From assembly GCF_025370775.1 (NCBI RefSeq), contig NZ_JAMXEX010000007.1, forward strand, positions 62,001 to 126,000: a stretch of 64,000 nucleotides of DNA. Reading direction: 5' to 3'. The notes below the pieces were generated by a model. That model ran no database searches. It saw only the letters and a list, made by a program, of their open reading frames with translations, and had not been told where the DNA came from. The DNA is from Ancylothrix sp. D3o (GTDB lineage: Bacteria; Cyanobacteriota; Cyanobacteriia; Cyanobacteriales; Oscillatoriaceae). Both the position numbers and the translations under genes were made by a program. Positions 6,317-57,996 of the stretch are shown here, in pieces (the stretch's first letter is position 1; every line of letters starts with the position of its first letter).

Positions 6317-6366
6317 TGGGTGCCGGTGATGGGTGCCGGTGATGGGTGCCGGTGATGGGTGCCGGT
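6313..6366. repeat. 13-bp tandem repeat, four copies
   Basis: GTGATGGGTGCCG repeated four times without change (6313-6364) plus a partial unit. The first copy supplies the TGA stop codon (6314-6316) of the interrupted ATPase gene, and the array runs into a GGTTTCAACCGG palindrome. Confidence 0.9.
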
Positions 6367-6418
6367 TTCAACCGGCGACAAATTGATTATATGAGCCAGT
6401 TTTTAATACCATCAAATT

Positions 6419-44755: not shown

Positions 44756-47401
44756 ATGGTGAGGTTTGCTGTTTTGGGCCGGTTGTTGAAGGGTGGAAAT
44801 TTTAGGGATTTTTTGATTTTGGGTTTGGTTTGGCTGGTTTGTGGGCTGCATGACCGGCTATGGTTTGCTTTGGATCGCTCGGTTCCTGCTTGGGATCAGG
44901 CTGAAAATTTGACGGGGGCTTTAAATTATTGGAATGCTTTGCTGCATCCAAACTGGTTTTCTGCTGGGTGGTGGCGGGATTTTTGGATGCTTTCTTCTAA
45001 GATGCCTCCTTTGACTTATATTTTAACTGCTATTTTTCATTTAATTTTTGGAACCGGCCCGCAGCAAGCGACTTTGGTTTATTTGTTTTTTAGTGGGGTT
45101 TTGTTGGGTTCTGTTTATGGGTTGGGTCGGGTTTTGTTTGATGGGCGGGTTGGTTTATGGGCGGCGGGTTTATGTGTTTTGTTTCCGGGTTTGGTTCGGT
45201 TACGTCTTGAGTTTTTGTTGGATTATCCTTTGACGGCGATGGTGGCGTTGACGTTTTTTTGTTTGACGCTTTGGCGGGGGTGTTTTGGCGATTGGTTGGG
45301 TTTGGGGGCGGGCACTTCGTCACGGGCGATAGCTGGGAATTTTATAAGGTTTTTTAATTATCAATCTGCTGTTAGAAATCCTGAAGCATGGGTTTTTGCT
45401 TCGCTTTTTGGGCTGTGTTTTGGGTTGGCTTTGTTGGTGAAGCAAACGGCTTTATTTTTTGTTTTGATTCCTTTGTTGTGGGTTGGGGTTGGGGTGCTTT
45501 GGCACCGGCAATGGGGGCGTTTTTTTCAGTTGTTGTGGTCTTTGTTTTTGACGCTTTTGGTTTGTGGGCCTTGGTATCGGACGAATTGGTTATTAATTTT
45601 AACTTCGGGGAAAAGGGCTACGGTTGATTCGGCTTTTGCTGAGGGTGATCCGGCTTTAAATACTTTGGGGGCTTGGCTTTTTTATGGTCAAGATTTGCCG
45701 AATTTGCTTTCTTGGCCTTTGTTGTTGGTGCCGGTGGTTGGGTTTTTGTTATTTGTTATTAAGTTGCTTTTTAGAAATGCGGAATTTAGTAATAATTTAA
45801 AAGAAAAGAGAAAGGAGAAAGCAGAAAATACAAAAAAATCTTTAATTTGGTTGTTGGTGTTTTTGGTTGGTTCTTATTTGCTTTGTTCGCTGAATGTGAA
45901 TAAGGATTCTCGGTATGTTTTGCCTTATTTGCCTGTGGTGGCTTTGTTTCTGGCTTATGGGTTGATGCTTTATCCGCGACGATGGGGCCGGCGGGTTCGG
46001 TGGGGGACGGTGGTTTTGGGTGTGGTTTTGATGTTGTTGAATGTTTGGCCGGTGGGGGGTTTTGTTGGTAGGAATTTTGTTAATTTTTTAAGTCCTCGTG
46101 GTGAACATTTGGCTTATTTTGGCGCAAAATGGCCTCATCAGGAGGTGATTTCGGAGATTATTAATTATTCGCCTTTTTTGGAGGCAAATTTAGGGGTTTT
46201 GCCTTCTACTCCTGAAATTAATCAGCATAATTTTAATTATTTTGGAGCTTTAGAAAGTTTCCAAGTTTATGCGCGTCAGGTGGGGGTTAGGGTTAAGGAT
46301 GTGGGGCGGGATGCGGGTTCGATGTCTTGGTTTGTTACTAAGACTGGTGATCAAGGTTCGGTGCCAAAGCAGGCGCAGGCGGCTATTGTTAAGTTGGTGG
46401 AAGATGGGGGGGATTTTGTTTTACATAAAAGGTGGCGTTTGCCGGATAGGAGTGTGTTGAAGTTATACCGGCGTCGGGTTGATTTTGTTGATGTTGAGGT
46501 TGTTAAAAATGAGTCGGTTTCTGGTGGTGTCAGGTTGGCAAGTGTGCGGGTTCCTGATGTTGTTTTGCCTGGGTTGCCGGTGCCGGTTAGTTACGAGTGG
46601 TTGGGAAGTTGGGATGAGTTGCAAAAGGGTATTGTTTTGCTGAGTTGGAAACAGGTTGTTTCTGGTTCTAAGGAGAATTTGTCTTTTTTACATGATCATG
46701 CGATTGGGTTGGGGATGTTGCATGATAAGGCGAAGGTTTCTAAGTCTGAGGTGTTTTTGGTTCGGGAAAATTTGGCGATGTTACCTCCGCCTAATTCGAG
46801 GGGTGTTTATGTTTTGGAGGGGAGGTTTTTAAACCGGCAAACTGGAAAAAGTTATGCAGTTAATGTGCCGAATGTGCGTTTAAGGGTGGATGCGAAGGCG
46901 GCGAGAGTGGAGGCGCCGGAGTTGGATCTTGTGACGCAGATGCGGGTTATGGCTGTGTCTTTGCGGTTGGGTGTGGCTGGGTTGGGGCCGATTTTTGAGG
47001 AGGTGGCGCGGATTAATCAGTATGATCCAGTGCAGGATTATACAATGGCGGGTGATTTGGCGTTGAGTTACCGGCTGCGGAATGAGGGTGCAAAGCGTTC
47101 TTGGGCTTATGCTGTGGGGTTTTCGCGGGTTTTGCGGCAGGATGTGAGGGGGGCGATTCGGGGGCTTGAGGAGGTTGTGAGGTTGGATTCAGAGAATGTT
47201 TATGCTTATGGTTATTTAGCTTTTGTGCATTTGTATAATTGGGATGGAAGGCGGGCGGAGAGGGCTTTGAAGCCGGCTTTTGATGTTGATGCGAATGTTG
47301 TTGAAATTAAGGCGTTGCGAGGGGTTGCGCGTTTGATGCAGGGTAATTTTTTGGGCGCTTGGGGGGATTTGCAGGTTTTGCGGGGGTTGGGGGGTGGATA
47401 A
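44756..47401 (+). CDS. GT39-like membrane glycosyltransferase with TPR tail
   Basis: 881 residues. Twelve or so hydrophobic segments in the first 450 residues, with the acidic loop motif SVPAWDQAENLTGALNYW near residue 41 as in ArnT/PMT-type GT39 enzymes, plus KMPPLTYIL and VNKDSRYVLPYLPVVALFL. They use polyprenyl-phosphate sugars to glycosylate lipids or proteins facing the periplasm. A large soluble beta-rich domain follows, and residues about 760-880 form TPR-like helices (LAFVHLYNWDGRRAERALKP). The substrate is unknown. The coding strand is strikingly G/T-rich. Confidence 0.82.
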   Translation: MVRFAVLGRLLKGGNFRDFLILGLVWLVCGLHDRLWFALDRSVPAWDQAENLTGALNYWNALLHPNWFSAGWWRDFWMLSSKMPPLTYILTAIFHLIFGTGPQQATLVYLFFSGVLLGSVYGLGRVLFDGRVGLWAAGLCVLFPGLVRLRLEFLLDYPLTAMVALTFFCLTLWRGCFGDWLGLGAGTSSRAIAGNFIRFFNYQSAVRNPEAWVFASLFGLCFGLALLVKQTALFFVLIPLLWVGVGVLWHRQWGRFFQLLWSLFLTLLVCGPWYRTNWLLILTSGKRATVDSAFAEGDPALNTLGAWLFYGQDLPNLLSWPLLLVPVVGFLLFVIKLLFRNAEFSNNLKEKRKEKAENTKKSLIWLLVFLVGSYLLCSLNVNKDSRYVLPYLPVVALFLAYGLMLYPRRWGRRVRWGTVVLGVVLMLLNVWPVGGFVGRNFVNFLSPRGEHLAYFGAKWPHQEVISEIINYSPFLEANLGVLPSTPEINQHNFNYFGALESFQVYARQVGVRVKDVGRDAGSMSWFVTKTGDQGSVPKQAQAAIVKLVEDGGDFVLHKRWRLPDRSVLKLYRRRVDFVDVEVVKNESVSGGVRLASVRVPDVVLPGLPVPVSYEWLGSWDELQKGIVLLSWKQVVSGSKENLSFLHDHAIGLGMLHDKAKVSKSEVFLVRENLAMLPPPNSRGVYVLEGRFLNRQTGKSYAVNVPNVRLRVDAKAARVEAPELDLVTQMRVMAVSLRLGVAGLGPIFEEVARINQYDPVQDYTMAGDLALSYRLRNEGAKRSWAYAVGFSRVLRQDVRGAIRGLEEVVRLDSENVYAYGYLAFVHLYNWDGRRAERALKPAFDVDANVVEIKALRGVARLMQGNFLGAWGDLQVLRGLGGG

Positions 47402-47404
47402 GTA

Positions 47405-47535
47405 TCTACACGAAGAAAGTCGCCGGTTGAAACCGGCGACTACAGGAAGAAAGTCCTACGGACTACAGAAGAAAGCTTTGTAACCCCGGAGGGGTTTTAT
47501 TCATGTAGACGCCGGTTTTAACCGGTGGCTAATAT
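47405..47535. repeat. Composite palindromic repeat, left copy
   Basis: Three adjacent palindromes: GTCGCCGGTT-GAA-AACCGGCGAC-type (47419-47440), AGTCC-TACG-GACT (47452-47464), and AACCCC-GGA-GGGGTT (about 47482-47496). Positions 47481-47510 are the exact reverse complement of 50428-50457 (30/30), and 47450-47465 of 50473-50488 (16/16). Confidence 0.9.
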
Positions 47536-47600
47536 GGGTGGCGTTTCAGGGGCGTTTATGTGTGGGAGTTGTCAGAATTGGAGGCCGGTGTTTTTGGGTT

Positions 47601-49481
47601 TTAGAAGCAAATTTCTCCATTATCTAGCTTGGTTTGAAGTTTCTGTTTAACGTTGTCCGTTGATTTAACATCCTCTATTAGTTTGTGGAGATCAGTGTGG
47701 CGCTTATCTTGCCGAAGCTCTATGATAAGGTCGATTGTATTTTGCCTCATTCCTACGCCTCTAAATGCTTGCACCAGTTCTTCTTTGCTGGCAGTATTGA
47801 TATTCACCGGCTTTGTTGGTGGTACCTGATTTCCTATTGGCTGAGCTTTTTTTGGTTCAGCTTCGTCAATTTCCCCGTCTAAGGGAGGTTCCGGGTGATC
47901 AATTTTGTACAATTCCGGGTTATCAACTTTGTGCAAAATTTGATCAATCGAATCTAGTAGAAGCTTTAATTGTTTATCTGCTTGGATAAATTCAATGTTC
48001 TTAATCTCTAATTTCTTGAGCAAAAGCGATTGACATGAAGGTGCAATTATAAAAGCCAGATCGGGAGGATTGCCATTAACCGAAAAAGGTGTAAATTTAG
48101 CATCTTTTAACCACTCATCAAAAGTAGTTAAATGTTTACTCAAAAGGTCATAGTTTTTTGCCTCACCAAATGCTTTAGCTACTGCGTATCCATTATGCAA
48201 TAACTCTACATAGCAGTCGAAAGCGTGGGTTATATGGCCGTTAGGTGTATCACAAGTGATGGAAGTTGTGGTAGGATATACCTTAACTTCATACTGCTTT
48301 TGCTTTAAAAATGTTGCCCATTTCTCTCGACATTTTGCCTCTACTAAATCCCGTGCTTTATTCTCATATACATTAAAGTTTTTGTCAAAATGATTAAAAT
48401 ATTTTTCGTGAATTTCTTTGACTTTACCTCCATATTTTTGGCAAAAATCTCGTAAAGTATGACAATCTTTTCCTGGTTCTACATTTATTGCTTCTATTTC
48501 TTGCCATGCTTGCTTAAAATCTTGGCAACCACTATAGGCATCTTTTATCCTTTTAGTAATTTGTTCTTTAATTTTTTCGCACTCTTCTCTACGGAAAGGT
48601 ACTAACATGACTGTTGAGCCAGATATTTTAGCTGCTAAAGCAGCATCGCTTTGAATAAACTTATCTACATCATCAGAGATACCAACCACATACATCATTA
48701 ACTGGACTTTCCCTTGATACTTATCAAACGAGCGATTAATTAATGCTCTAATGATTGCTCTTGCCCCTGCCATATATTCTGCGTGGCTTTTTAAGGCATC
48801 AAGCTCATCAATGAGATAAACAAATCTAAATGCTGGCTCTTTTTGCTTAACGCCATCAATCAATTTGAAGAAAAGTTGTTCAAAATTTACACCATGTTTT
48901 CCTAGTAAATATTCAGTGAATAGCTCACTAAATTTGTTATCCGAGCTAGTTGATTGTTGAAGTTGAGCAAATTGCTCAGTTTTGAGTATCTCTTTGAGAA
49001 AATCCTCGCAGCTTGTTTTAACGTTTTGCTTAATTTGAGAACCATTTTTCAATAATTCCCACAAGGTTTGCACCAAAATGTGACAGTATAATTTGACGCC
49101 AAAACTTTCCTTTCCCGCTATCGCTAATAAATCATTCAAGGAAAAATTGACAACGACTGAATTAACGCTGTGTTTTGGTTCTACTCTAATTAATTCTCGA
49201 AAGTAATTGAGCAATGCAGTTTTACCACTACCGGGTGTAGCCGCAATAAATCTGAACGTGAAAAAGCCCTCTTCAAAATTATGTTTAATATCATCCTTGA
49301 GCAGTTCAGTTAAATTAGAAATAGGCCAACCAGACAAGCTGTTTGCTGTGTTATATTGGCCATCAGTCCCAAATTTTCTAACTTCTCGCTCAATCCATAT
49401 ATCTTCAATAAACCCATTACCTTGGCTAACTTGGTGAAGGAAGTCGCGTAAAATTCTTTTTTTTCCAGCATCTTCAGGCAT
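47601..49481 (-). CDS. AAA+ ATPase - predicted PD-(D/E)XK nuclease - HhH fusion
   Basis: 626 residues. Residues 1-320 are a P-loop ATPase: Walker A AATPGSGKTALL (K87, T88) and Walker B FVYLIDELDAL (D225, E226), with an R-rich sensor-like region. Residues about 378-500 fit a restriction-endonuclease fold: helix with E381, D422 in HAFDCYVEL, and the E440-A-K442 motif in KAFGEAKNYD, then alternating helix/strand LAFIIAPS. Residues 558-612 are a ComEA-like helix-hairpin-helix region (VNINTASKEELVQAFRGVGM). ATP-driven DNA binding and cleavage is a reasonable inference. The start is three bases after the partner's stop. No known defence family was recognised, so this is a strong candidate for an undescribed system. 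Confidence 0.82.
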   Translation of the reverse strand: MPEDAGKKRILRDFLHQVSQGNGFIEDIWIEREVRKFGTDGQYNTANSLSGWPISNLTELLKDDIKHNFEEGFFTFRFIAATPGSGKTALLNYFRELIRVEPKHSVNSVVVNFSLNDLLAIAGKESFGVKLYCHILVQTLWELLKNGSQIKQNVKTSCEDFLKEILKTEQFAQLQQSTSSDNKFSELFTEYLLGKHGVNFEQLFFKLIDGVKQKEPAFRFVYLIDELDALKSHAEYMAGARAIIRALINRSFDKYQGKVQLMMYVVGISDDVDKFIQSDAALAAKISGSTVMLVPFRREECEKIKEQITKRIKDAYSGCQDFKQAWQEIEAINVEPGKDCHTLRDFCQKYGGKVKEIHEKYFNHFDKNFNVYENKARDLVEAKCREKWATFLKQKQYEVKVYPTTTSITCDTPNGHITHAFDCYVELLHNGYAVAKAFGEAKNYDLLSKHLTTFDEWLKDAKFTPFSVNGNPPDLAFIIAPSCQSLLLKKLEIKNIEFIQADKQLKLLLDSIDQILHKVDNPELYKIDHPEPPLDGEIDEAEPKKAQPIGNQVPPTKPVNINTASKEELVQAFRGVGMRQNTIDLIIELRQDKRHTDLHKLIEDVKSTDNVKQKLQTKLDNGEICF

Positions 49482-49484
49482 AAT

Positions 49485-50063
49485 CTACTCTATCCAATTA
49501 ATAAGATCATCTTCTCTTCCAGCAACCACTGAAATTTCACCTTGAGATTTCAGTTTTTCAAAGAACTTTTCAAGCAGAGTTTCAGAAATAGCGTTTTCCT
49601 CAATAAACTGCCGAAATAGCTGTTTTTTCACAATGGCAACTACACCCCGTAACTGTTGCTCTTTTCTTTGTTGAAAATAAAGTTTTTTAAACTTCTCAAC
49701 AAATGTCTCAAAGTCCATCTCCTCAGCCGCAGCCGAGGAAACTACAGTCTCAGGAGACAGTAATTTGAAGCAACTCAAAAGAGCATTTAGCATTTTTGGC
49801 CCTTTCGCGGACTCAAATTTATAATCTGTGGTTTGCAAATTTGCTACTAAGGCTTTTTTCCCCAACTCTGTCACCGCAAGCCGGCTTGCTTTCAGAGATT
49901 CTAGTAACTTTTGCTGACACAAATCTTCACAAATTTGATCCGCTTTTTTCTTCACATCTGCCGGCAAATTGCCTTTAACATCACCCTTTTTTACCGTCCC
50001 GTCTGTCGAGTAAGCAACCGCGAAAAGCAGATAAAGCATTTGTTCGGTGGAAAGCTTAGCCAT
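49485..50063 (-). CDS. Winged-helix-like partner protein
   Basis: 192 residues, helical. An N-terminal region (MAKLSTEQMLYLLFAVAYST, then ICEDLCQQKLLESLKASRLA and VTELGKKAL) resembles a winged helix with a wing-like LAVTELGKKA segment. The C-terminal half is charged helices (DFETFVEKFKKLYFQQRKEQ). AGAGAGGA at good spacing before the ATG. It is the first gene of a two-gene operon with the ATPase-nuclease, three bases apart. Could be a regulator or DNA-targeting subunit. Family not recognised. Confidence 0.7.
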   Translation of the reverse strand: MAKLSTEQMLYLLFAVAYSTDGTVKKGDVKGNLPADVKKKADQICEDLCQQKLLESLKASRLAVTELGKKALVANLQTTDYKFESAKGPKMLNALLSCFKLLSPETVVSSAAAEEMDFETFVEKFKKLYFQQRKEQQLRGVVAIVKKQLFRQFIEENAISETLLEKFFEKLKSQGEISVVAGREDDLINWIE

Positions 50064-50344
50064 AAGTTCCTCTCTTCCCCTTAATCCGGGGTTGTGTGTG
50101 CTTGAGTCTTCAAAAAATCACTCTGGCAAACTTATAACACAATCCACCGGCCTCTGGCTGAGTAACATTGCTTAACATTAGTCCCATTCATCACCTATTG
50201 CCATTGTCTCTGCAAACAACACTTAGACTATTATAAAGTGCTGTTCTCGCATTAAAAAAACTTTAACAAATCTTCATTTTTAGCTTTATATTTAGCAGCC
50301 CATAGGCTCTTTTAATATTCTTTTTCTGGAGAAAAATATTTTCT

Positions 50345-50640
50345 AAGTCGTCCGTTGAAACCGACATCTACATGAATACAACCCCTTCAAGATTAGAAGT
50401 TTATTATTTAGACACCGGTTAAATAGCGTCTACATGAATAAAACCCCTCCGGGGTTAGAAAGCTTTATTATTTAGTCCGTAGGACTTTTTTCGTGTAGAC
50501 GCCGGTTTCAACCGGCGGCGAATAGGGGTGGCGTTTAACCGGCAGCGAATAGGGGTGGCGTTTAACCGGCAGCGAATAGGGGTGGCGTTTAACCGGCAGC
50601 GTTTTTCGTGTGGATGCCAATTTTAACCGGCGGCTTTTTT
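50345..50640. repeat. Composite palindromic repeat, right copies, with 27-bp tandem triplication
   Basis: A degenerate copy at 50345-50400, then 50428-50457 and 50473-50488 as perfect inverted matches to the left copy, a CGCCGGTTT-CA-ACCGGCG palindrome near 50500-50517, and three identical 27-bp units at 50518-50544, 50545-50571 and 50572-50598. The remaining part of 50064-50779 has no gene. Confidence 0.92.
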
Positions 50641-50779
50641 TATTCCGCTTTTTCTCTAACTTTAGACACAGACTCTATCCCCCCATTTCCCGCTTTTAGA
50701 AAGAGGCATATTTGCACGCCTTAGCTTAAAATTTCCCTACCAAATAACCAATAAACTTAAAATATCAGGAGCAAAAACT

Positions 50780-51646
50780 TTGAAATCAGCACTTATTTTA
50801 CCCCCCAGCACAGAAAAACCCAATTATCAAACCGGCTCAATTTTTTTCGTCGGAACTGCAACCGTTATTTTACGTTACGCCGGCTTTACAATCTTAACAG
50901 ACCCTAATTTTCTCCACCAAGGCGATCACATTCATTTGGGTTACGGCATTACATCAACTCGCACAACAAACCCCGCGATAGAAATGGAACAACTTCCACC
51001 CCTTGATTTTGTTCTACTTTCTCATGTACATGATGATCATTTTGATCGCGTTGCTGAAGCAAACCTCGATAAAAAATTACCAATTATCACCACACCTCAA
51101 TCCGCTGTTTATCTAGCAAAAAAAGGCTTTTCCTCACCGCAAGCGCTCAAAACTTGGGACACAATAAATATTAGCAAAGGCGACGCCAAACTTTCTATAA
51201 CTGCCATGCCAGCCACACATGGCCCCGGCATTCTTGGTGCTTTATTACCGCAGGTGATGGGAAGTATGTTAGAATTTCAATTACCTTCTGGTGAAATTGT
51301 TTTTCGTCTCTACATCACCGGCGACACTCTCATTCACGAACACCTCAAAGAAATTCCCCAACGCTACCCCAATATTGACCTCGCATTGCTACATTTAGGC
51401 GGAACAAAAGCTTTAGGAATTTTGGTAACAATGGACGCAAAACAAGGCGTACAAGCCATCGAAATTATCGCCCCCCAAACGGCAATTCCTATTCATTACA
51501 ACGATTACACAGCCTTTAAATCTCCCCTCGAAGATTTTATGGCAGCAGTCAAAGCAGCCGGTCTTGAAAATAAAGTAAAATATTTAAGTCATGGCGAAAC
51601 TTATCAGTTTCAAGTGTCGGGAATTCCTGCTAACTTTGCCGGTTAG
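50780..51646 (+). CDS. MBL-fold metallohydrolase (UlaG-like)
   Basis: 288 residues with a TTG start supported by AGGAG nine bases upstream. Metal-binding motif HVHDDH (near residue 81-86, H-x-H-x-D-H), preceded by TDPNFLHQGDH, and later ligands in ATHGPG, YITGDTLIH and IPIHYNDYTAF. This matches UlaG-type beta-lactamase-fold hydrolases. The substrate is unknown. Complete. Confidence 0.88.
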   Translation: MKSALILPPSTEKPNYQTGSIFFVGTATVILRYAGFTILTDPNFLHQGDHIHLGYGITSTRTTNPAIEMEQLPPLDFVLLSHVHDDHFDRVAEANLDKKLPIITTPQSAVYLAKKGFSSPQALKTWDTINISKGDAKLSITAMPATHGPGILGALLPQVMGSMLEFQLPSGEIVFRLYITGDTLIHEHLKEIPQRYPNIDLALLHLGGTKALGILVTMDAKQGVQAIEIIAPQTAIPIHYNDYTAFKSPLEDFMAAVKAAGLENKVKYLSHGETYQFQVSGIPANFAG

Positions 51647-51711
51647 TTGATGTTTCTTTTAAAGCTGGGGTGAGTAAGTTTCTGGAGAAAATTGTCAGAT
51701 TTCAAATTAAT

Positions 51712-52212
51712 CTATTCCGCTAATTCACTCTCCCACTCACCCGTTTCGCCTGGGTAAAATTTCTCGTCTAAAATTGCTGCAAGAGTGTAAAGACATTCGG
51801 CGGGAAAAGTGCGTTTTGGTAAATCAGTTTCTCCAGACGCTAAAGCTACACTTTTGTTGAAGTAAACTTCCTCTACTGCTTCTGCTAGGTAAGGTTTTAA
51901 ACTGGGATTTTGCTTTAATAATCTCCCAATATCAAAGCGTTGTACTCGAATTGTATTCAGCCAACTACGACTACGCCTCTCTGGTTGATACTCCCATTTC
52001 AGCAAATGTCCGATTAAAATACTAAGCCGGTTTTCTAATTCCCGCCGTTCTTGTTTACCCAAAGATTCAACCTCCTCTATCAGATTTTCTAAATCAATAG
52101 CATGGAATTGACGGTTACGAAGTAACTGTGCTTGTTCTTGTGTCCACGCATAAAAATCAGTCTCATAAAGACCGGAAGTAGACGTTTTTGGGCCGGTTTC
52201 TGAAGTGTGCAT
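51712..52212 (-). CDS. DUF29 family protein (copy A)
   Basis: 166 residues. DUF29 pattern YETDFYAWTQEQAQLLRNRQ, AIDLENLIEEVESLGKQERR, ELENRLSILIGHLLKWEYQP and a C-terminal FPAECLYTLAAILDEKFYPG. DUF29 genes form large families in cyanobacteria; function unknown. Tandem with a close paralogue at 52246: the central parts are nearly identical at DNA level, the C-terminal halves differ. Confidence 0.88.
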   Translation of the reverse strand: MHTSETGPKTSTSGLYETDFYAWTQEQAQLLRNRQFHAIDLENLIEEVESLGKQERRELENRLSILIGHLLKWEYQPERRSRSWLNTIRVQRFDIGRLLKQNPSLKPYLAEAVEEVYFNKSVALASGETDLPKRTFPAECLYTLAAILDEKFYPGETGEWESELAE

Positions 52213-52245
52213 AAAATTTTTCCTTTCTTGGGTTTTTCACTGTTT

Positions 52246-52743
52246 TTAATCTTCCCATTCCTTAACCAAATCACTCGCTTCTCCGGGGTAAAACTCCTCG
52301 TCTAAAATTTCTGAGAAACTGTAAAGACACACTGTGGGAAATGTGCTTTTGGCTAACTTTGTTTCTAATTTTGCCAAATCTCTACCATTTTCGTAAGCTT
52401 CTCCCACAGCTTCTTCTAAGTAAGGTTTTAAACTGGGGTTTTCTTTTAATAGCTTCAATGTATCGCGCCGTTGAATACGAATGGTGGCTAACCAACTGTC
52501 GCTACGCCTTTCTGGTTGATACTCCCATTTCAGCAAATGTCCGATTAAAATACTAAGCCGGTTTCTGAGTTCCCGCCGTTCTTGTTTTCCCAAAGATTCA
52601 ACCTCCTCAATTAAATTTTCTAAATCAATAGCATCAAATTGATGATTACGAAGTAACTGTGCTTGTTCTTGTGTCCACGCATAAAAATCTGTCTCATAAA
52701 GACCGGCCTTTTCTGTGGGGGGATGACTTTCTGAAATCTGCAT
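52246..52743 (-). CDS. DUF29 family protein (copy B)
   Basis: 165 residues, same domain pattern as copy A (YETDFYAWTQEQAQLLRNHQ, then AIDLENLIEEVESLGKQERR). Differences cluster in the C-terminal third. Separated from copy A by 33 bases, so likely a shared operon. No other motif. Confidence 0.88.
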   Translation of the reverse strand: MQISESHPPTEKAGLYETDFYAWTQEQAQLLRNHQFDAIDLENLIEEVESLGKQERRELRNRLSILIGHLLKWEYQPERRSDSWLATIRIQRRDTLKLLKENPSLKPYLEEAVGEAYENGRDLAKLETKLAKSTFPTVCLYSFSEILDEEFYPGEASDLVKEWED

Positions 52744-52804
52744 AAAAAATTTCTCCCTTATTTAAAAACCCTATCACTGCCCATTTTAACGCAGCTTTAA
52801 TAAC

Positions 52805-52838
52805 AAAAAACCCGGCCTCTTTAATCAGAAACCGGGTT
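52805..52838 (-). terminator. Terminator of the chemosensory operon
   Basis: On the minus strand AACCCGG / CCGGGTT (7 pairs, extendable by TTTCT/AGAGG) with six T, 37 bases past the cheA stop. Confidence 0.85.
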
Positions 52839-52874
52839 ACTTTGCACCATAACATAAATGCCAAATCGCAAAGA

Positions 52875-55800
52875 TTATTCGCCTTTAGTCATCACCAACA
52901 CCTCACCTTTAAGCATCCGAGTCGCCGCCTCAAGCAACGCCTCTTCCAAATAAGGCTTCGTGAAATAACCGCGAGCACCCAAAGACACCGCCATTTGCCG
53001 GTGCCGGTCTGCACCACGAGAAGTTAACATAGCAATTGGTAAATTCGTCAGAATTGCATCTTTTTGCATCCGAGACAACAACTCCAAACCATCCATACGC
53101 GGCATTTCGATATCGCAGAACACAATATCGCAAGGCAAACCAGAGCGTAATTTTTCCCACGCCTCCTGACCATCTCGCGCTTGTTCCACCCGATATCCCG
53201 CCTTGTTGAAGGTCATACTCAACAACTCGCGTACCGTAATAGAATCGTCCACAATCAGCACAGTTGGCTCGTTCTTCTCGATAATCTCCACCGGCACCGA
53301 GTTAGCAGAATCATCCCAGAGATTACCACCGGCCTCCTTGCGAATGCGTCCCGCAGCCAAATCAATCAACTCCAGAACATCCGCAATAGCCACAATTCGA
53401 CCATCCCCCATCACCGTCGCACCGGCCACCCCCACAGGCTTAGGCACCGGCCCTTCCAACTGCTTAATCACAATTTCCTGCTCACCTAACACCTGATCCA
53501 CTTGCAGAGCCAAATAATTGCCCGCACTTCGTAGCACAACTACCGATATCACATCATCTTCAGCATTAGTGCCATATACATTACCCCGGCCCAAATGCCG
53601 GTTATAACCAAGCAACTCGCGTAGATGACGGAACGAAAGCATCGAATCACGCCAAGCAATACTCATTTGCCCATCCGCTGTTATTTGTACCCGATCACGA
53701 GGCACATCCAACATATCCTCAACCCCATCCATCGGGAAAGCAATGCGAGCACGGTCACTTATACAACAAAGCGCCTTAGAAATACTCAGCGTCAACGGCA
53801 AGCGAATCGTAAACGTAGTACCCTTACCAATACTAGAATCGGTACTTATCACCCCCCGAATCTCACTTAAATCATTACGAATCACATCCATGCCAACGCC
53901 TCGGCCCGCCGTCATATTAGCCTTCTCCATTGTGCTAAAGCCCGGATGATACAGAAGCTCATATACATCAGGCCGGCCCATACTAGCAGCCTCAGCCGCA
54001 GTAATTAACTTTTTCTCAATGGCCTTGCGTTTAACCTTCTCCGTATCAATACCGGCCCCATCATCAGAGAAAGAAATCACCGTTTGGTTGCCTTGATGGA
54101 AAGATCGAATTGTAATCCGGCCCACCGGCGGCTTACCGGCAGCAATTCGCACCGCAGGCGTTTCAATGCCGTGAGCAATAGCATTATTAATCAAATGCTT
54201 AAGCGGGTCAGACAAATGCTCCAAAATCAACTTATCAAGCATGGTGTCCCGGCCTTCCAGGCGAACCTCAGCTTGTTTTTCATGTTCAATCGCCTTATCA
54301 CGCACCGCACGCGCCAAAGGAAAAATTTTCTCAATCGAAGAAAAAGGCACCATTCGAGAACGAGTCAAACCTTCTTGCAACTGAGTTGTAATTTGCCGCA
54401 ATTGCCTTGTCACCTGCTCAGTTTCATCAACCAAAAACTCAATATCCGCCGCTGATTCTCGCACCCGTACAATTAACTCAATAATTTCTTGAGACTGGGT
54501 GTGGAAGCCGGTAAACCTGTCCATTTCCAAAGCATCAAAAGCAGCACCAGTCGAATGAGAATTAGTTTTACCACTTCGCATTGCTTGGTAATGTTGCCTT
54601 GAAGAAAGCAAGGAAATTTCCAACAACGAACGCTCATACAAATCCTGCATCCGTTGACCCACATCTGACAACTGGCTAACTTGATGCAGCAAATTATCCA
54701 AAAATTGCCGCAAACGCTCTTGATCTTGTTCTAAACTGTTGCGGTTAACAACCAATTCCCCCACCAAGTTGCTGAGGTTATCAAGTTGCTTAATTGGCAC
54801 CCGCATGGTTTGCTCGACAAAAGATTTTTGCTTTTTGCCGGCCACCGAACCACTACCTGTAACAGGTTTTTGAGCTATTCTGCTTCCTGGCAAGGATTTT
54901 TCGGCCCCGCGCAGTAGTTCGTGGAGGTCTGCAAATTCGTCGGTTTCCATTCCGTCGGAGTCGGAGAGGCTCTCCATAAACGCTTCTTGTGATTCGTTTG
55001 TTTGGGCAGGAAAAATAATTTGGGGTAGTGTCGGTTGGGGGGCTGCCGGTGGTATGGATGGCCGGTCTAGGAGGGCTTCCAATTCCGTAAATAAGGTAGC
55101 CGGATCATTGTTCTGGCTGTCAAAAAATGCTTCTGTGCAGGGTTGTTCTAAAAGTGCTTCGAGCAATAAAAACGAAGCAGTTTCTGTTGATTTGGAATTT
55201 TTTTCTTTTGATTTTGGCTCTATTACAGGTTCGGATACTGGGATAACTGGGGTTGGTTTTTGGGCCGGTGCTGCTTTTGAAGATAAAGGCGCTGTTGTTT
55301 CCTGAGCAGGTTCTAATTCCCCCATTAATTCATCAAATGTCAGTTCTTCCTCAAAGATAATTTCCTGATTATTTTTAGGTTGTACTTCTTCTAAAAATTT
55401 CCGAGAATTCTTTGTTTTATTTCCTGTTAATAATGTATCAACAAAGAAAAGCGAACCAAAATCATCTGACTGAAGACTATCTGTAGTGCTGGCAGTGGCT
55501 TCGCCGGCATCCGACTCAAATACTAAATCTAACTCTTCATCAAATAAAGAATCAGCATCAATTATTACCCCCCCATCATCGCTGCCAAAAAGTTCATCGC
55601 TCAGAGAATTTTCTGCCGTATTCTCACTAATTTTTTCCTCAAACAACTCATTAAAAGAGTTATCAAAAGAAGAAGTTTCCTCAGCAAACAAATCCTCCTC
55701 ACCGTTAAGGTCGGAAGTGGGGATTTGTGAGTTTGCAGTTGGGAGGTTGTCGGTAGGGGGGGTTTTTTCTTCTTTTAATTCCCTCCTCTCCACTCCTTCC

Positions 55801-57866
55801 TGATTGTGCTTGTTTTCTAATTCTGGAAGGTCGGCAAAAAGAGCATCTAAATCATCTGATTGGCTCTGGAGAGAACTATCTGCCAGGGCGGGAGAATTTT
55901 GCGGAGGCGTTTGGAAAAATATGGCATCAAAGTCATCATCATTATTGGTTTTCGGCTCAAATTCTTCTTCAAAAAGCGAAGCGCTATCCAGTTCAAGGTC
56001 GCCCCATTCAGCTTTGATTTCTTCTAAGTCTACTGAAAGTGAAGAAGCTGCTGTCTCGGAAAAATCGCCAATAGAGAGAAGCTCACTTAAGTCTAGGGAG
56101 CTATCAGAATCAACAGCGTTTTTTGTGTTAGTTGAATTGAAATTAGATGTTTCTGGTTTCGTTATATTGTCTTTTTGATCAAACAGAGTTTCAAAGTCTA
56201 GGGAAGTATCGGTATTGAGAGCCGTTGGCGGATTTACGGGGGAGGTTTCGCTTTCGGGGGTATTCCACAGTTCTTCCCATTCCATTGTTTTTTGTGAATC
56301 TTGATTGATTACGGAGTTTTGTGGGTTTATTGGGGCTGGTGAGTCTTCATCTGCGTCGTTGCCGGCAAACAAGGCTTCCAAGTCATCCGCGCTTTCTTGC
56401 ATAGAAAATAAATCGGGGTGGTTACGTCGTCGGGTGCCGGTTGTTGGGCTGTCGGTTGTGGAGTGAGGTGTTTCGGTTTGGTTCCAGTTGTCTTCGTTGA
56501 GCAGGGAGTCTCCAAATAAGTTATTAAGTTCATCAACCGAGGTGATTTCTTCAATATGGTTGCCGGTGTCTTCCTCAAAGAGGAGGTCTGCAAAATCCGA
56601 GTCTAATTCCTCTGAGGAAGATGCGCCGAGGGAGGCGGACTGAGTTAAGTGTGAAAGTTCTTGGCGCTTGGGAGAGTCGATAATTTCTTCAGCTTCCCAG
56701 GTGCTATCTAACTCTGGGGCTTCGCCTTCAAATAAATCAGCTAAACTGGTGAGTTCTGCCATACCGACTTCGGGGCCAACTGTACGGGAACGCTTTCCGC
56801 TGTTGACTGCTGGGGCGTTGCGCGTTGAGGGGGCTGGGTTTTTTGAGGTGCCGGCTTTTTGGGAGGCCGGTGTAGCTGGTTCTGATGAGTTGTTATGGTT
56901 GGGCTGTTGGGGTAACATAGCAAAACTTGTGGCTGTGTTTTTGGATTTGTGGTTTTTTGAGTCTGGCTTTTCTGGGTTTTTGTGAGAGCCGTTGGTTATT
57001 GTTTGGGGAGGCTGGAGAATTTGGAGGTTGTTGCTGATGGCGATCTGGTTAGTTTTGCCTGCCAGAACAAATTCTTGGGCTTGCTTGATGTCTCTGATAA
57101 TGACAGGGGCGAGGCTAGAGAAGGTATGTTTGGGATCGTTGATCGCCTGTCGCGCTGCTTCGATCAGGTCGCACCAGGGTTGTAGTTCAAACTGTTCGCC
57201 GGCTGCGATCAATCGGTGGCAAATGTCTTGAAGTTTTTTTCGGGTTTGTGAGGTTGGTTGCTGTTTGAAAAGTTCCAGCATTTCCCGCAACCCTTGGGGT
57301 ACATCACTTTGAAAAATCAGTTGCAGGGCGCTAACTTCAAGATTTTCGTTGAGATATGGCGTAGGGGTTTTGAGGCTGGCGGCGGAGGGTTGGAGAGTGG
57401 GGATATTTTGAGGGGATTTTGGAGAAGTGAGACGAGAATCAGATGTGCTGACAAGGCTTTTGAGGTGGTGGGTAATTTCGGCGATAGTTGGCTCAACGTT
57501 TGCCATCAGCGGTGCCGTGACTTCCGGCGTTTCTCCAGCCCCTGTTTGGATTTGTTCGAGCAATGCTTGCATGGCGTCGAAGACTTTGAGAAAGAGGGTT
57601 TCTAGTTTTTGGTCTACGACGACAGGACACTCCTCAAGAATTTTAAAACAGTCCTCGAACAGATGAGCGGTGGTTTTGATTGCAGTCAGACCGAGCATGG
57701 CGGCGCCGCCTTTGACAGAGTGGGCAGCGCGGAAGACTTCTTTAACGATTTCTGGGTCTTCGATGGTTGCTTGCAAATTTAGTAAGCCGTGTTCGATGGT
57801 ATTGAGGTGTTCTTTTGCTTCCTCAATAAAGTAGCCCATGATTCGTTGTTGTTGTTCCGGCAGCAT
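52875..57866 (-). CDS. Hybrid CheA histidine kinase (pil/hmp/tax type) with receiver
   Basis: 1663 residues from ATG 57866 (MLPEQQQRIMGYFIEEAKEH); an upstream in-frame TTG at 57923 would add 19 residues. Domains: Hpt with phospho-His in RAAHSVKGGAAMLG; a second, degenerate helical Hpt-like segment; a very long acidic disordered linker with recurring LF-D/E motifs; dimerisation (IKQLDNLSNLVGELVVNRNS); HATPase_c with HLINNAIAHGIE and FSDDGAGID; CheW-like; and a C-terminal receiver (LIVDDSITVRELLS, phospho-Asp in FCDIEMPRMDG, FTKPY). It phosphorylates CheY-type regulators controlling type IV pilus motility. Last gene of the operon. Confidence 0.95.
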   Translation of the reverse strand: MLPEQQQRIMGYFIEEAKEHLNTIEHGLLNLQATIEDPEIVKEVFRAAHSVKGGAAMLGLTAIKTTAHLFEDCFKILEECPVVVDQKLETLFLKVFDAMQALLEQIQTGAGETPEVTAPLMANVEPTIAEITHHLKSLVSTSDSRLTSPKSPQNIPTLQPSAASLKTPTPYLNENLEVSALQLIFQSDVPQGLREMLELFKQQPTSQTRKKLQDICHRLIAAGEQFELQPWCDLIEAARQAINDPKHTFSSLAPVIIRDIKQAQEFVLAGKTNQIAISNNLQILQPPQTITNGSHKNPEKPDSKNHKSKNTATSFAMLPQQPNHNNSSEPATPASQKAGTSKNPAPSTRNAPAVNSGKRSRTVGPEVGMAELTSLADLFEGEAPELDSTWEAEEIIDSPKRQELSHLTQSASLGASSSEELDSDFADLLFEEDTGNHIEEITSVDELNNLFGDSLLNEDNWNQTETPHSTTDSPTTGTRRRNHPDLFSMQESADDLEALFAGNDADEDSPAPINPQNSVINQDSQKTMEWEELWNTPESETSPVNPPTALNTDTSLDFETLFDQKDNITKPETSNFNSTNTKNAVDSDSSLDLSELLSIGDFSETAASSLSVDLEEIKAEWGDLELDSASLFEEEFEPKTNNDDDFDAIFFQTPPQNSPALADSSLQSQSDDLDALFADLPELENKHNQEGVERRELKEEKTPPTDNLPTANSQIPTSDLNGEEDLFAEETSSFDNSFNELFEEKISENTAENSLSDELFGSDDGGVIIDADSLFDEELDLVFESDAGEATASTTDSLQSDDFGSLFFVDTLLTGNKTKNSRKFLEEVQPKNNQEIIFEEELTFDELMGELEPAQETTAPLSSKAAPAQKPTPVIPVSEPVIEPKSKEKNSKSTETASFLLLEALLEQPCTEAFFDSQNNDPATLFTELEALLDRPSIPPAAPQPTLPQIIFPAQTNESQEAFMESLSDSDGMETDEFADLHELLRGAEKSLPGSRIAQKPVTGSGSVAGKKQKSFVEQTMRVPIKQLDNLSNLVGELVVNRNSLEQDQERLRQFLDNLLHQVSQLSDVGQRMQDLYERSLLEISLLSSRQHYQAMRSGKTNSHSTGAAFDALEMDRFTGFHTQSQEIIELIVRVRESAADIEFLVDETEQVTRQLRQITTQLQEGLTRSRMVPFSSIEKIFPLARAVRDKAIEHEKQAEVRLEGRDTMLDKLILEHLSDPLKHLINNAIAHGIETPAVRIAAGKPPVGRITIRSFHQGNQTVISFSDDGAGIDTEKVKRKAIEKKLITAAEAASMGRPDVYELLYHPGFSTMEKANMTAGRGVGMDVIRNDLSEIRGVISTDSSIGKGTTFTIRLPLTLSISKALCCISDRARIAFPMDGVEDMLDVPRDRVQITADGQMSIAWRDSMLSFRHLRELLGYNRHLGRGNVYGTNAEDDVISVVVLRSAGNYLALQVDQVLGEQEIVIKQLEGPVPKPVGVAGATVMGDGRIVAIADVLELIDLAAGRIRKEAGGNLWDDSANSVPVEIIEKNEPTVLIVDDSITVRELLSMTFNKAGYRVEQARDGQEAWEKLRSGLPCDIVFCDIEMPRMDGLELLSRMQKDAILTNLPIAMLTSRGADRHRQMAVSLGARGYFTKPYLEEALLEAATRMLKGEVLVMTKGE

Positions 57867-57996
57867 AGGGCAGGGTAAACGACTTTGGTGGATTTGAAAA
57901 AGGGCGGCGCACAGCCTTTTCAAGTCTTGGCAGCGCGGTGATTTTGAGGAGGCGTGGGGAGGGGTTGTTTGTTTTGTTGCCCATCCCCGCGTCTAA

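What the first reader, a model, noticed from the sequence alone, without database searches (positions are those of the whole stretch)
47405..50640. Repeat-flanked ATPase / nuclease / HhH module with a small partner
Seen: a two-gene operon (3 bases apart) encoding a 626-residue protein with Walker A/B, a D422...E-A-K (440-442) nuclease-like core and a C-terminal HhH, plus a 192-residue winged-helix-like protein. Known: ATPase plus PD-(D/E)XK plus DNA-binding fusions are frequent in anti-phage and mobile-element systems. Inferred: a small self-contained DNA-targeting system, possibly defence, that moves or recombines via its flanking repeats. I recognise no named defence family with this order.
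Basis: partly seen in the sequence, partly recalled or inferred. Interest (0 to 1): 0.85.

Follow-up and report, generated by a model that had tools for sequence, protein, structure and literature searches.

The report
Cyanobacterial ORC-like ATPase-nuclease gene pair
Two neighbouring genes in a cyanobacterium encode an ATP-driven molecular switch fused to a probable DNA-cutting domain and a small DNA-binding partner; the pair travels as a unit, is present in only some strains, and in one relative the cutting domain is disabled and a different toxin-like domain added, so it looks like an undescribed member of a known class of bacterial immune systems.

Summary
47601-49481(-) encodes a 626-aa protein (A): ORC/Cdc6-like AAA+ ATPase (2-365), PD-(D/E)XK-like nuclease core (371-500; D422, E440, K442), disordered linker, C-terminal ComEA-like HhH. 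Three bases upstream lies a 192-aa protein (B) of two winged helices. Homologues were found only in cyanobacteria (8/386 genomes phylum-wide; about 30/391 in the order). Of 35 fetched loci, 31 carry B next to A, with a 3-nt gap in 25 of 29 measured pairs. The nuclease triad is kept in 26 of 27 distinct genes found without motif bias; the exception has lost all three residues and gained a TIR domain. One homologue has WD40 repeats instead of the HhH. B is also homologous to the small protein of a second cyanobacterial operon whose ATPase and DUF1802-PD-(D/E)XK nuclease are separate genes. In three same-family genomes the flanking genes are adjacent without the pair. The flanking repeats are a genome-wide dispersed palindromic element, absent from four other genomes, three of them pair carriers, so they do not define the module. 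Best reading: an NTP-switched nuclease conflict (probably anti-phage) system, an uncatalogued variant of known ORC/Cdc6-REase systems. No activity has been shown.

The parts
47601..49481 (-). Protein A, 626 aa: AAA+ ATPase / PD-(D/E)XK-like nuclease / linker / HhH
   Evidence: ORF; alignment of 29 homologues; AlphaFold2 model pLDDT 83.2
48387..49478 (-). AAA+ ATPase domain of A, residues 2-365, ORC/Cdc6, TnsC, BrxC and RdrA-like
   Evidence: VIA-align Z 15.4 to ORC4 (4xgc_D, rmsd 3.7, 263 aligned); TnsC 13.5, BrxC 12.7, RdrA 12.1
49218..49232 (-). Walker A GSGKT (residues 84-88)
   Evidence: K87 and T88 in all 31 aligned homologues
48798..48809 (-). Walker B end DELD (residues 225-228)
   Evidence: D225 and D228 in all 31; E226 in 30 of 31
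47982..48371 (-). PD-(D/E)XK-like nuclease core of A, residues 371-500
   Evidence: Secondary-structure order in the model; D422/E440/K442 in 26 of 27 distinct genes found without motif bias; only a weak sequence match to PDDEXK_5, E 0.025
48216..48218 (-). Predicted catalytic D422
48156..48164 (-). Predicted catalytic E440-A441-K442
47604..47810 (-). C-terminal ComEA-like HhH of A, residues 558-626
   Evidence: TIGR01259 E 5.6e-4 and TIGR00426 E 8e-4, below curated cut-offs; helices at 566-620 in the model; replaced by WD40 repeats in L057
49485..50063 (-). Protein B, 192 aa: two winged-helix modules, partner of A
   Evidence: Model pLDDT 84.2; residues 1-80 match MarR-type winged helices at Z 11; next to A in 31 loci; homologous to B' of a three-gene operon, hhalign prob 96.6, E 4.8e-10
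47402..52874 (.). Variable island between a PMT_2 membrane protein gene and a CheA-like gene: A, B, an MBL-fold hydrolase gene and two DUF29 genes
   Evidence: In G002, G005 and G007 the two flanking genes are adjacent (about 117 bp) and none of these five genes lies between
47405..47533 (.). Left copy of the dispersed palindromic repeat (not specific to the module)
   Evidence: 67 matches in the genome, about 20 long
50345..50634 (.). Right copies of the dispersed palindromic repeat, inverted relative to the left, with a 27-nt tandem array

Best explanation
A-B is a two-gene, NTP-switched nuclease conflict system of cyanobacteria, most likely anti-phage or anti-plasmid. Proposed mechanism: B, a tandem winged-helix protein, binds DNA and/or recruits and licenses A. 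A's ORC/Cdc6-type AAA+ domain binds ATP and assembles, possibly on DNA, when a trigger is sensed by B and/or by the exchangeable C-terminal module (HhH, or WD40 in one homologue). Assembly activates the PD-(D/E)XK domain, which cuts DNA of the invader or of the infected cell. In the TIR variant the nuclease has lost its catalytic residues and the TIR domain would be the effector, presumably acting on NAD+. Shown here: domain layout, strict pairing, coevolution, patchy presence, the triad loss with TIR gain, the empty site in relatives. Inferred: trigger, oligomer, DNA cleavage, defence.
For: ORC/TnsC/BrxC/RdrA-like AAA+ fold. Triad kept in 26/27 distinct genes found without motif bias. A-B pairing in 31 loci with a fixed 3-nt gap in 25 of 29; A and B distance matrices correlate, r 0.82, 0 of 2000 permutations as high. 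One homologue (L022) is D422K/E440G/K442R and carries a TIR_2 domain, E 2.1e-17, with a W-x-x-x-E motif. Another (L057) has WD40 repeats in place of the HhH. Patchy: 8/386 and about 30/391 genomes; empty site in three same-family genomes; remnants L062, L063 and split copy L059. B homologue B' sits in an operon with an AAA+ ATPase and a DUF1802-nuclease with D289/E301-C-K303; in L039 both systems lie within 10 kb. Published systems combine ORC/Cdc6 ATPases, REases, wHTH and TIR in counter-invader loci.
Against: No homologue on the phage, plasmid or viral-contig collections. Neighbourhoods hold few defence genes: single restriction/modification-type hits among 108 neighbours, two mad2 hits, no control set run. 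Within genera the locus often keeps its neighbours, so it is not highly mobile. The nuclease fold rests on model topology and conserved residues; sequence searches give only a weak PDDEXK_5 hit and no PDB relative, and the fold search covered only residues 2-365. The TIR exchange is one genome. Sensing and cleavage are untested.
Confidence: 0.62

Rival explanations
1. DNA repair, recombination or competence accessory: the HhH is ComEA-like and the ATPase ORC-like, so A-B would process damaged or incoming DNA for the cell's own use.
For: HhH matches ComEA models; winged-helix partner; chromosomal location with genus-level synteny.
Against: Present in only about 2-8% of cyanobacterial genomes; HhH exchangeable for WD40 and nuclease inactivated with TIR gain; pseudogenised copies.
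Confidence: 0.15
2. Accessory genes of a mobile element: a TnsC-like ATPase plus nuclease plus DNA-binding protein that mobilises the segment via flanking repeats.
For: TnsC among the structural neighbours; inverted repeats on both sides; empty site in relatives.
Against: Repeats are a dispersed family with 67 matches in this genome; the core palindrome has no exact copy in three genomes that carry the pair. No transposase or integrase constantly linked (integrases in 3 of 108 neighbours). Empty-site difference spans five genes, not the repeat-bounded segment.
Confidence: 0.08
3. Toxin-antitoxin-like pair: B is a repressor and antitoxin that neutralises the toxic nuclease A; stress or phage relieves it.
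For: Small upstream DNA-binding gene, tight coupling, co-divergence; MarR-like winged helix.
Against: A has an intact AAA+ switch, unusual for a simple toxin; B homologue B' sits in a three-gene ATPase/nuclease operon, pointing to a complex subunit. Compatible as a regulatory layer.
Confidence: 0.13

Closest known systems
ORC/Cdc6-coupled REase counter-invader neighbourhoods (PMC10853773, section 22)
   Same: ORC/Cdc6 AAA+ ATPase, PD-(D/E)XK REase, wHTH protein, TIR fusions in some members; predicted anti-selfish-element role.
   Different: Here a two-gene unit without HerA/FtsK; active-looking REase directly C-terminal to the ATPase rather than an inactive REase plus separate active one; HhH or WD40 C-terminus; the paper's text does not mention cyanobacteria or HhH.
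CR-type NTPase-REase effectors and their prokaryotic relatives (described in PMC10853773, section 26)
   Same: CDC6/ORC1-clade NTPase followed by a C-terminal REase in one chain.
   Different: Constant winged-helix partner gene and HhH tail; sequence relationship not tested.
Three-gene operon B'-AAA+-DUF1802/PD-(D/E)XK of cyanobacteria (found here, L139-L145, L039)
   Same: Homologous winged-helix protein (hhalign prob 96.6, E 4.8e-10); AAA+ ATPase plus PD-(D/E)XK nuclease.
   Different: ATPase and nuclease on separate genes and not detectably homologous to A.
BREX BrxC / BrxD and RADAR RdrA
   Same: Same AAA+ fold class (BrxC 9zdx Z 12.7; RdrA 8hr8 Z 12.1); PF10923 BrxC_BrxD weak hits in 2 of 11 members.
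   Different: No PglZ, BrxX or adenosine deaminase gene recurrently linked; A is 626 aa with its own nuclease.
NCBIfam NF047389 ATPase_Sll1717 and PADLOC mad8
   Same: Weak matches over the ATPase (E 2.8e-5, 23 bits against a cut-off of 75; mad8 E 0.003).
   Different: Far below cut-off; no other MADS genes constantly linked.

Membership tests
ORC/Cdc6-clade AAA+ ATPases | AAA+ core with Walker A/B and ORC/Cdc6-like fold | tested here: met
   Z 15.4 to ORC4, 14.9 to archaeal Cdc6/Orc1 2qby_A over residues 5-363; Walker motifs conserved
ORC/Cdc6-clade AAA+ ATPases | Winged helix directly C-terminal to the AAA+ domain in the same chain | tested here: not met
   Residues 371-500 are a nuclease-like core, then linker and HhH; winged helices are on the separate protein B
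PD-(D/E)XK nuclease superfamily | D...(D/E)xK catalytic residues conserved | tested here: met
   26 of 27 distinct genes found without motif bias
PD-(D/E)XK nuclease superfamily | Core fold alpha-beta-beta-beta-alpha-beta confirmed by superposition | tested here: inconclusive
   Secondary-structure order fits, but the structure search covered residues 2-365 only and the domain could not be folded alone; PDDEXK_5 E 0.025 only
ORC/Cdc6-REase counter-invader systems (PMC10853773) | ORC/Cdc6 ATPase and active REase in one locus, with wHTH | tested here: met
ORC/Cdc6-REase counter-invader systems (PMC10853773) | Inactive REase inserted between AAA+ and a C-terminal wHTH, usually with HerA/FtsK | tested here: not met
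   REase in A keeps its triad; no recurrent third partner gene
BREX | PglZ and BrxX methyltransferase genes linked to the ATPase | tested here: not met
   Only A and B recur across genera
ComEA competence protein | Full-length ComEA match above curated cut-off | tested here: not met
   TIGR01259 19.9 bits against 152
Anti-phage defence system | Protection from phage in an assay | not testable with these tools
   needs a bench test

The most novel reading that the evidence does not exclude
A-B is a new cyanobacterial defence family in which the AAA+ core is a fixed chassis, the PD-(D/E)XK domain can be retired to a catalytically dead (perhaps sensing) domain when a TIR effector is added, the C-terminal sensor is exchangeable (HhH, WD40), and the winged-helix subunit is shared with a second, three-gene ATPase/nuclease system.
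Probability: 0.35. Interest if true: 0.65.

Novelty: new variant of a known kind. Interest (0 to 1): 0.5.

Why it matters
No curated library here names this pair, yet it recurs as a strict two-gene unit in many filamentous cyanobacteria, where few native anti-phage systems have been worked out. The natural variants make clear predictions: the nuclease triad should matter in the window's protein but not in the TIR homologue, where the TIR glutamate should matter instead. The shared winged-helix subunit links it to a second uncharacterised ATPase/DUF1802-nuclease operon and so offers a way to ask what the small subunit does in both.

Tried and rejected
Single-sequence scan of genome contigs found nothing; the alignment query gave 35 loci, and because one of its patterns contained FGEAKN its conservation counts are biased, so an unbiased set was used instead. 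Phage, plasmid and viral-contig searches: no hit. PDB sequence searches with A: only spurious phycobilisome-linker-like and transferrin hits. Pfam hits to PBS_linker_poly and E3_UFM1_ligase were below cut-off and dismissed. Homology of A's ATPase or nuclease to those of the three-gene operon: not detected. Repeats as mobility ends: rejected. Defence-island enrichment: left open, no control set. Literature: nothing on sll1717; DUF1802 only in an unrelated paper.

Full report
What is there. The window lies in a 6.57-Mb cyanobacterial assembly (G000:C7:62001-126000). On the minus strand, 49485-50063 encodes a 192-aa protein (B) and, 3 nt further on, 47601-49481 encodes a 626-aa protein (A). Neither protein reaches a curated cut-off in Pfam, NCBIfam or any strong PADLOC match; the weak ones (AAA_22, ATPase_2, ATPase_Sll1717, mad8, ComEA) agree with an AAA+ ATPase and an HhH.

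Structure. A29-sequence AlphaFold2 model of A (pLDDT 83) has three parts. Residues 2-365 superpose on ORC4, archaeal Cdc6/Orc1, TnsC, BrxC and RdrA (Z 15.4 to 12). Residues 371-500 have the helix-strands-helix-strand order of a PD-(D/E)XK nuclease with D422 and E440-A-K442 on or next to adjacent strands; this part was not covered by the structure search, and sequence gives only PDDEXK_5 at E 0.025, so the fold is well supported but not proven. A disordered stretch (506-555) leads to a helical C-terminus that matches ComEA-type HhH weakly. B models as a MarR-like winged helix plus a second winged-helix-like module.

Family. Searches without motif bias found A in 7 of 100 relatives, 8 of 386 phylum-wide and about 30 of 391 genomes of the order (in one search I count matches over the ATPase, not TIR-only matches). 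A genome-contig scan across bacteria and archaea returned 35 loci, all cyanobacterial. No phage, plasmid or viral contig hit was found. In 31 of 35 loci B lies directly upstream of A; the other four are contig-edge or decayed copies. The gap is 3 nt in 25 of 29 measured pairs, and the A and B distance matrices correlate at r 0.82 (0 of 2000 permutations as high; part of this is shared species history). No third gene recurs across genera.

Active-site conservation and natural swaps. In the set found without motif bias, D422, E440 and K442 are all present in 26 of 27 distinct genes (30 rows less three shorter duplicates of the same genes). The exception, L022 (G053), reads K, G, R at these positions and carries a C-terminal TIR domain (TIR_2 E 2.1e-17). 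L057 carries WD40 repeats where others have the HhH and keeps the triad. Such exchange of effector and sensor modules around an NTPase core is what conflict systems show; it is hard to reconcile with a fixed repair enzyme. The TIR case rests on one genome.

A related operon. A profile of B found remote homologues (B') in other cyanobacteria. These begin a three-gene operon: B', an AAA+ ATPase and a protein with DUF1802 followed by an invariant GGxGG(L/V/I)D...ECK nuclease motif. B and B' are homologous (hhalign prob 96.6, E 4.8e-10; B' profile finds the window's B at E 3e-6). The ATPases and nucleases of the two systems are not detectably homologous in sequence. In L039 both systems lie on one 10-kb stretch. 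About 55-60 of 386 cyanobacterial genomes have a DUF1802 frame of the long (about 430-520 aa) kind (my count from the list).

Genomic setting. In three genomes of the same family (G002, G005, G007) the PMT_2-type gene (44756-47401) and the CheA-like gene (52875-57923) are neighbours about 117 bp apart; in the window 5.5 kb lies between them: A, B, an MBL-fold gene and two DUF29 genes. These genomes have no A elsewhere. In G006 the CheA-like gene is followed directly by B and A. So the site is variable; gain and loss cannot be polarised. Neighbours of A-B elsewhere are mixed, with a few restriction/modification-type and integrase hits; without a control set I draw no enrichment claim.

The flanking repeats. 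They are copies of an approximately 105-130-nt palindromic element made of CGCCGGTT-NN-AACCGGCG ends and AGTCCTACGGACT / AACCCCGGAGGGGTT middles. The own genome holds 67 matches, about 20 of them long. Its core 16-mer palindrome occurs 15 times exactly in G000, once in G002 and G004, and not in G006, G065 or G314, three genomes that carry the pair. The repeats are therefore background, not the ends of a mobile unit, although two copies in inverted orientation could recombine.

Mechanism. Best supported: an AAA+ switch that, on a signal read by B and/or the C-terminal module, assembles and turns on a DNA-cutting domain, as proposed for ORC/Cdc6-REase counter-invader systems (PMC10853773; BREX-related work PMC12839542). 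Shown: layout, pairing, conservation, swaps, variable site. Inferred: sensing, assembly, cleavage, defence. Rivals are repair/competence, a mobile-element module and a toxin-antitoxin-like pair.

Verdict. It is an uncatalogued family that works like known ORC/Cdc6-REase conflict systems but fails two of their typical features (inactive inserted REase, same-chain C-terminal wHTH), so I call it a new variant of a known kind.

Noticed in passing
window 47405-47533, 50345-50634, 6360-6377: Dispersed palindromic repeat family (about 105-130 nt, four hairpin motifs) with 67 matches in this genome, several in close pairs (e.g. C1:627714 and C1:629403); rare or absent in relatives.
   Followed up: partly
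L139-L145, L039:174-4435: Three-gene cyanobacterial operon: winged-helix protein, AAA+ ATPase, DUF1802 fused to a GGAGGxD...ECK nuclease-like domain; no strong PADLOC match. Possibly an undescribed defence system.
   Followed up: partly
window 51712-52212 and 52246-52743: Tandem DUF29 genes, 84% identical over 300 nt, in the same variable island.
   Followed up: no
L022:7940-10129: A homologue with dead nuclease triad and C-terminal TIR domain.
   Followed up: partly
L062, L063, L065, L059: Decayed or split copies of A in Nostoc, Brasilonema and others, some without B, at a locus syntenic with intact copies in other Nostoc.
   Followed up: no
window 50513-50597: Three to four tandem copies of a 27-nt unit (CGGCGGCGAATAGGGGTGGCGTTTAAC) beside the right repeat.
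   Followed up: no
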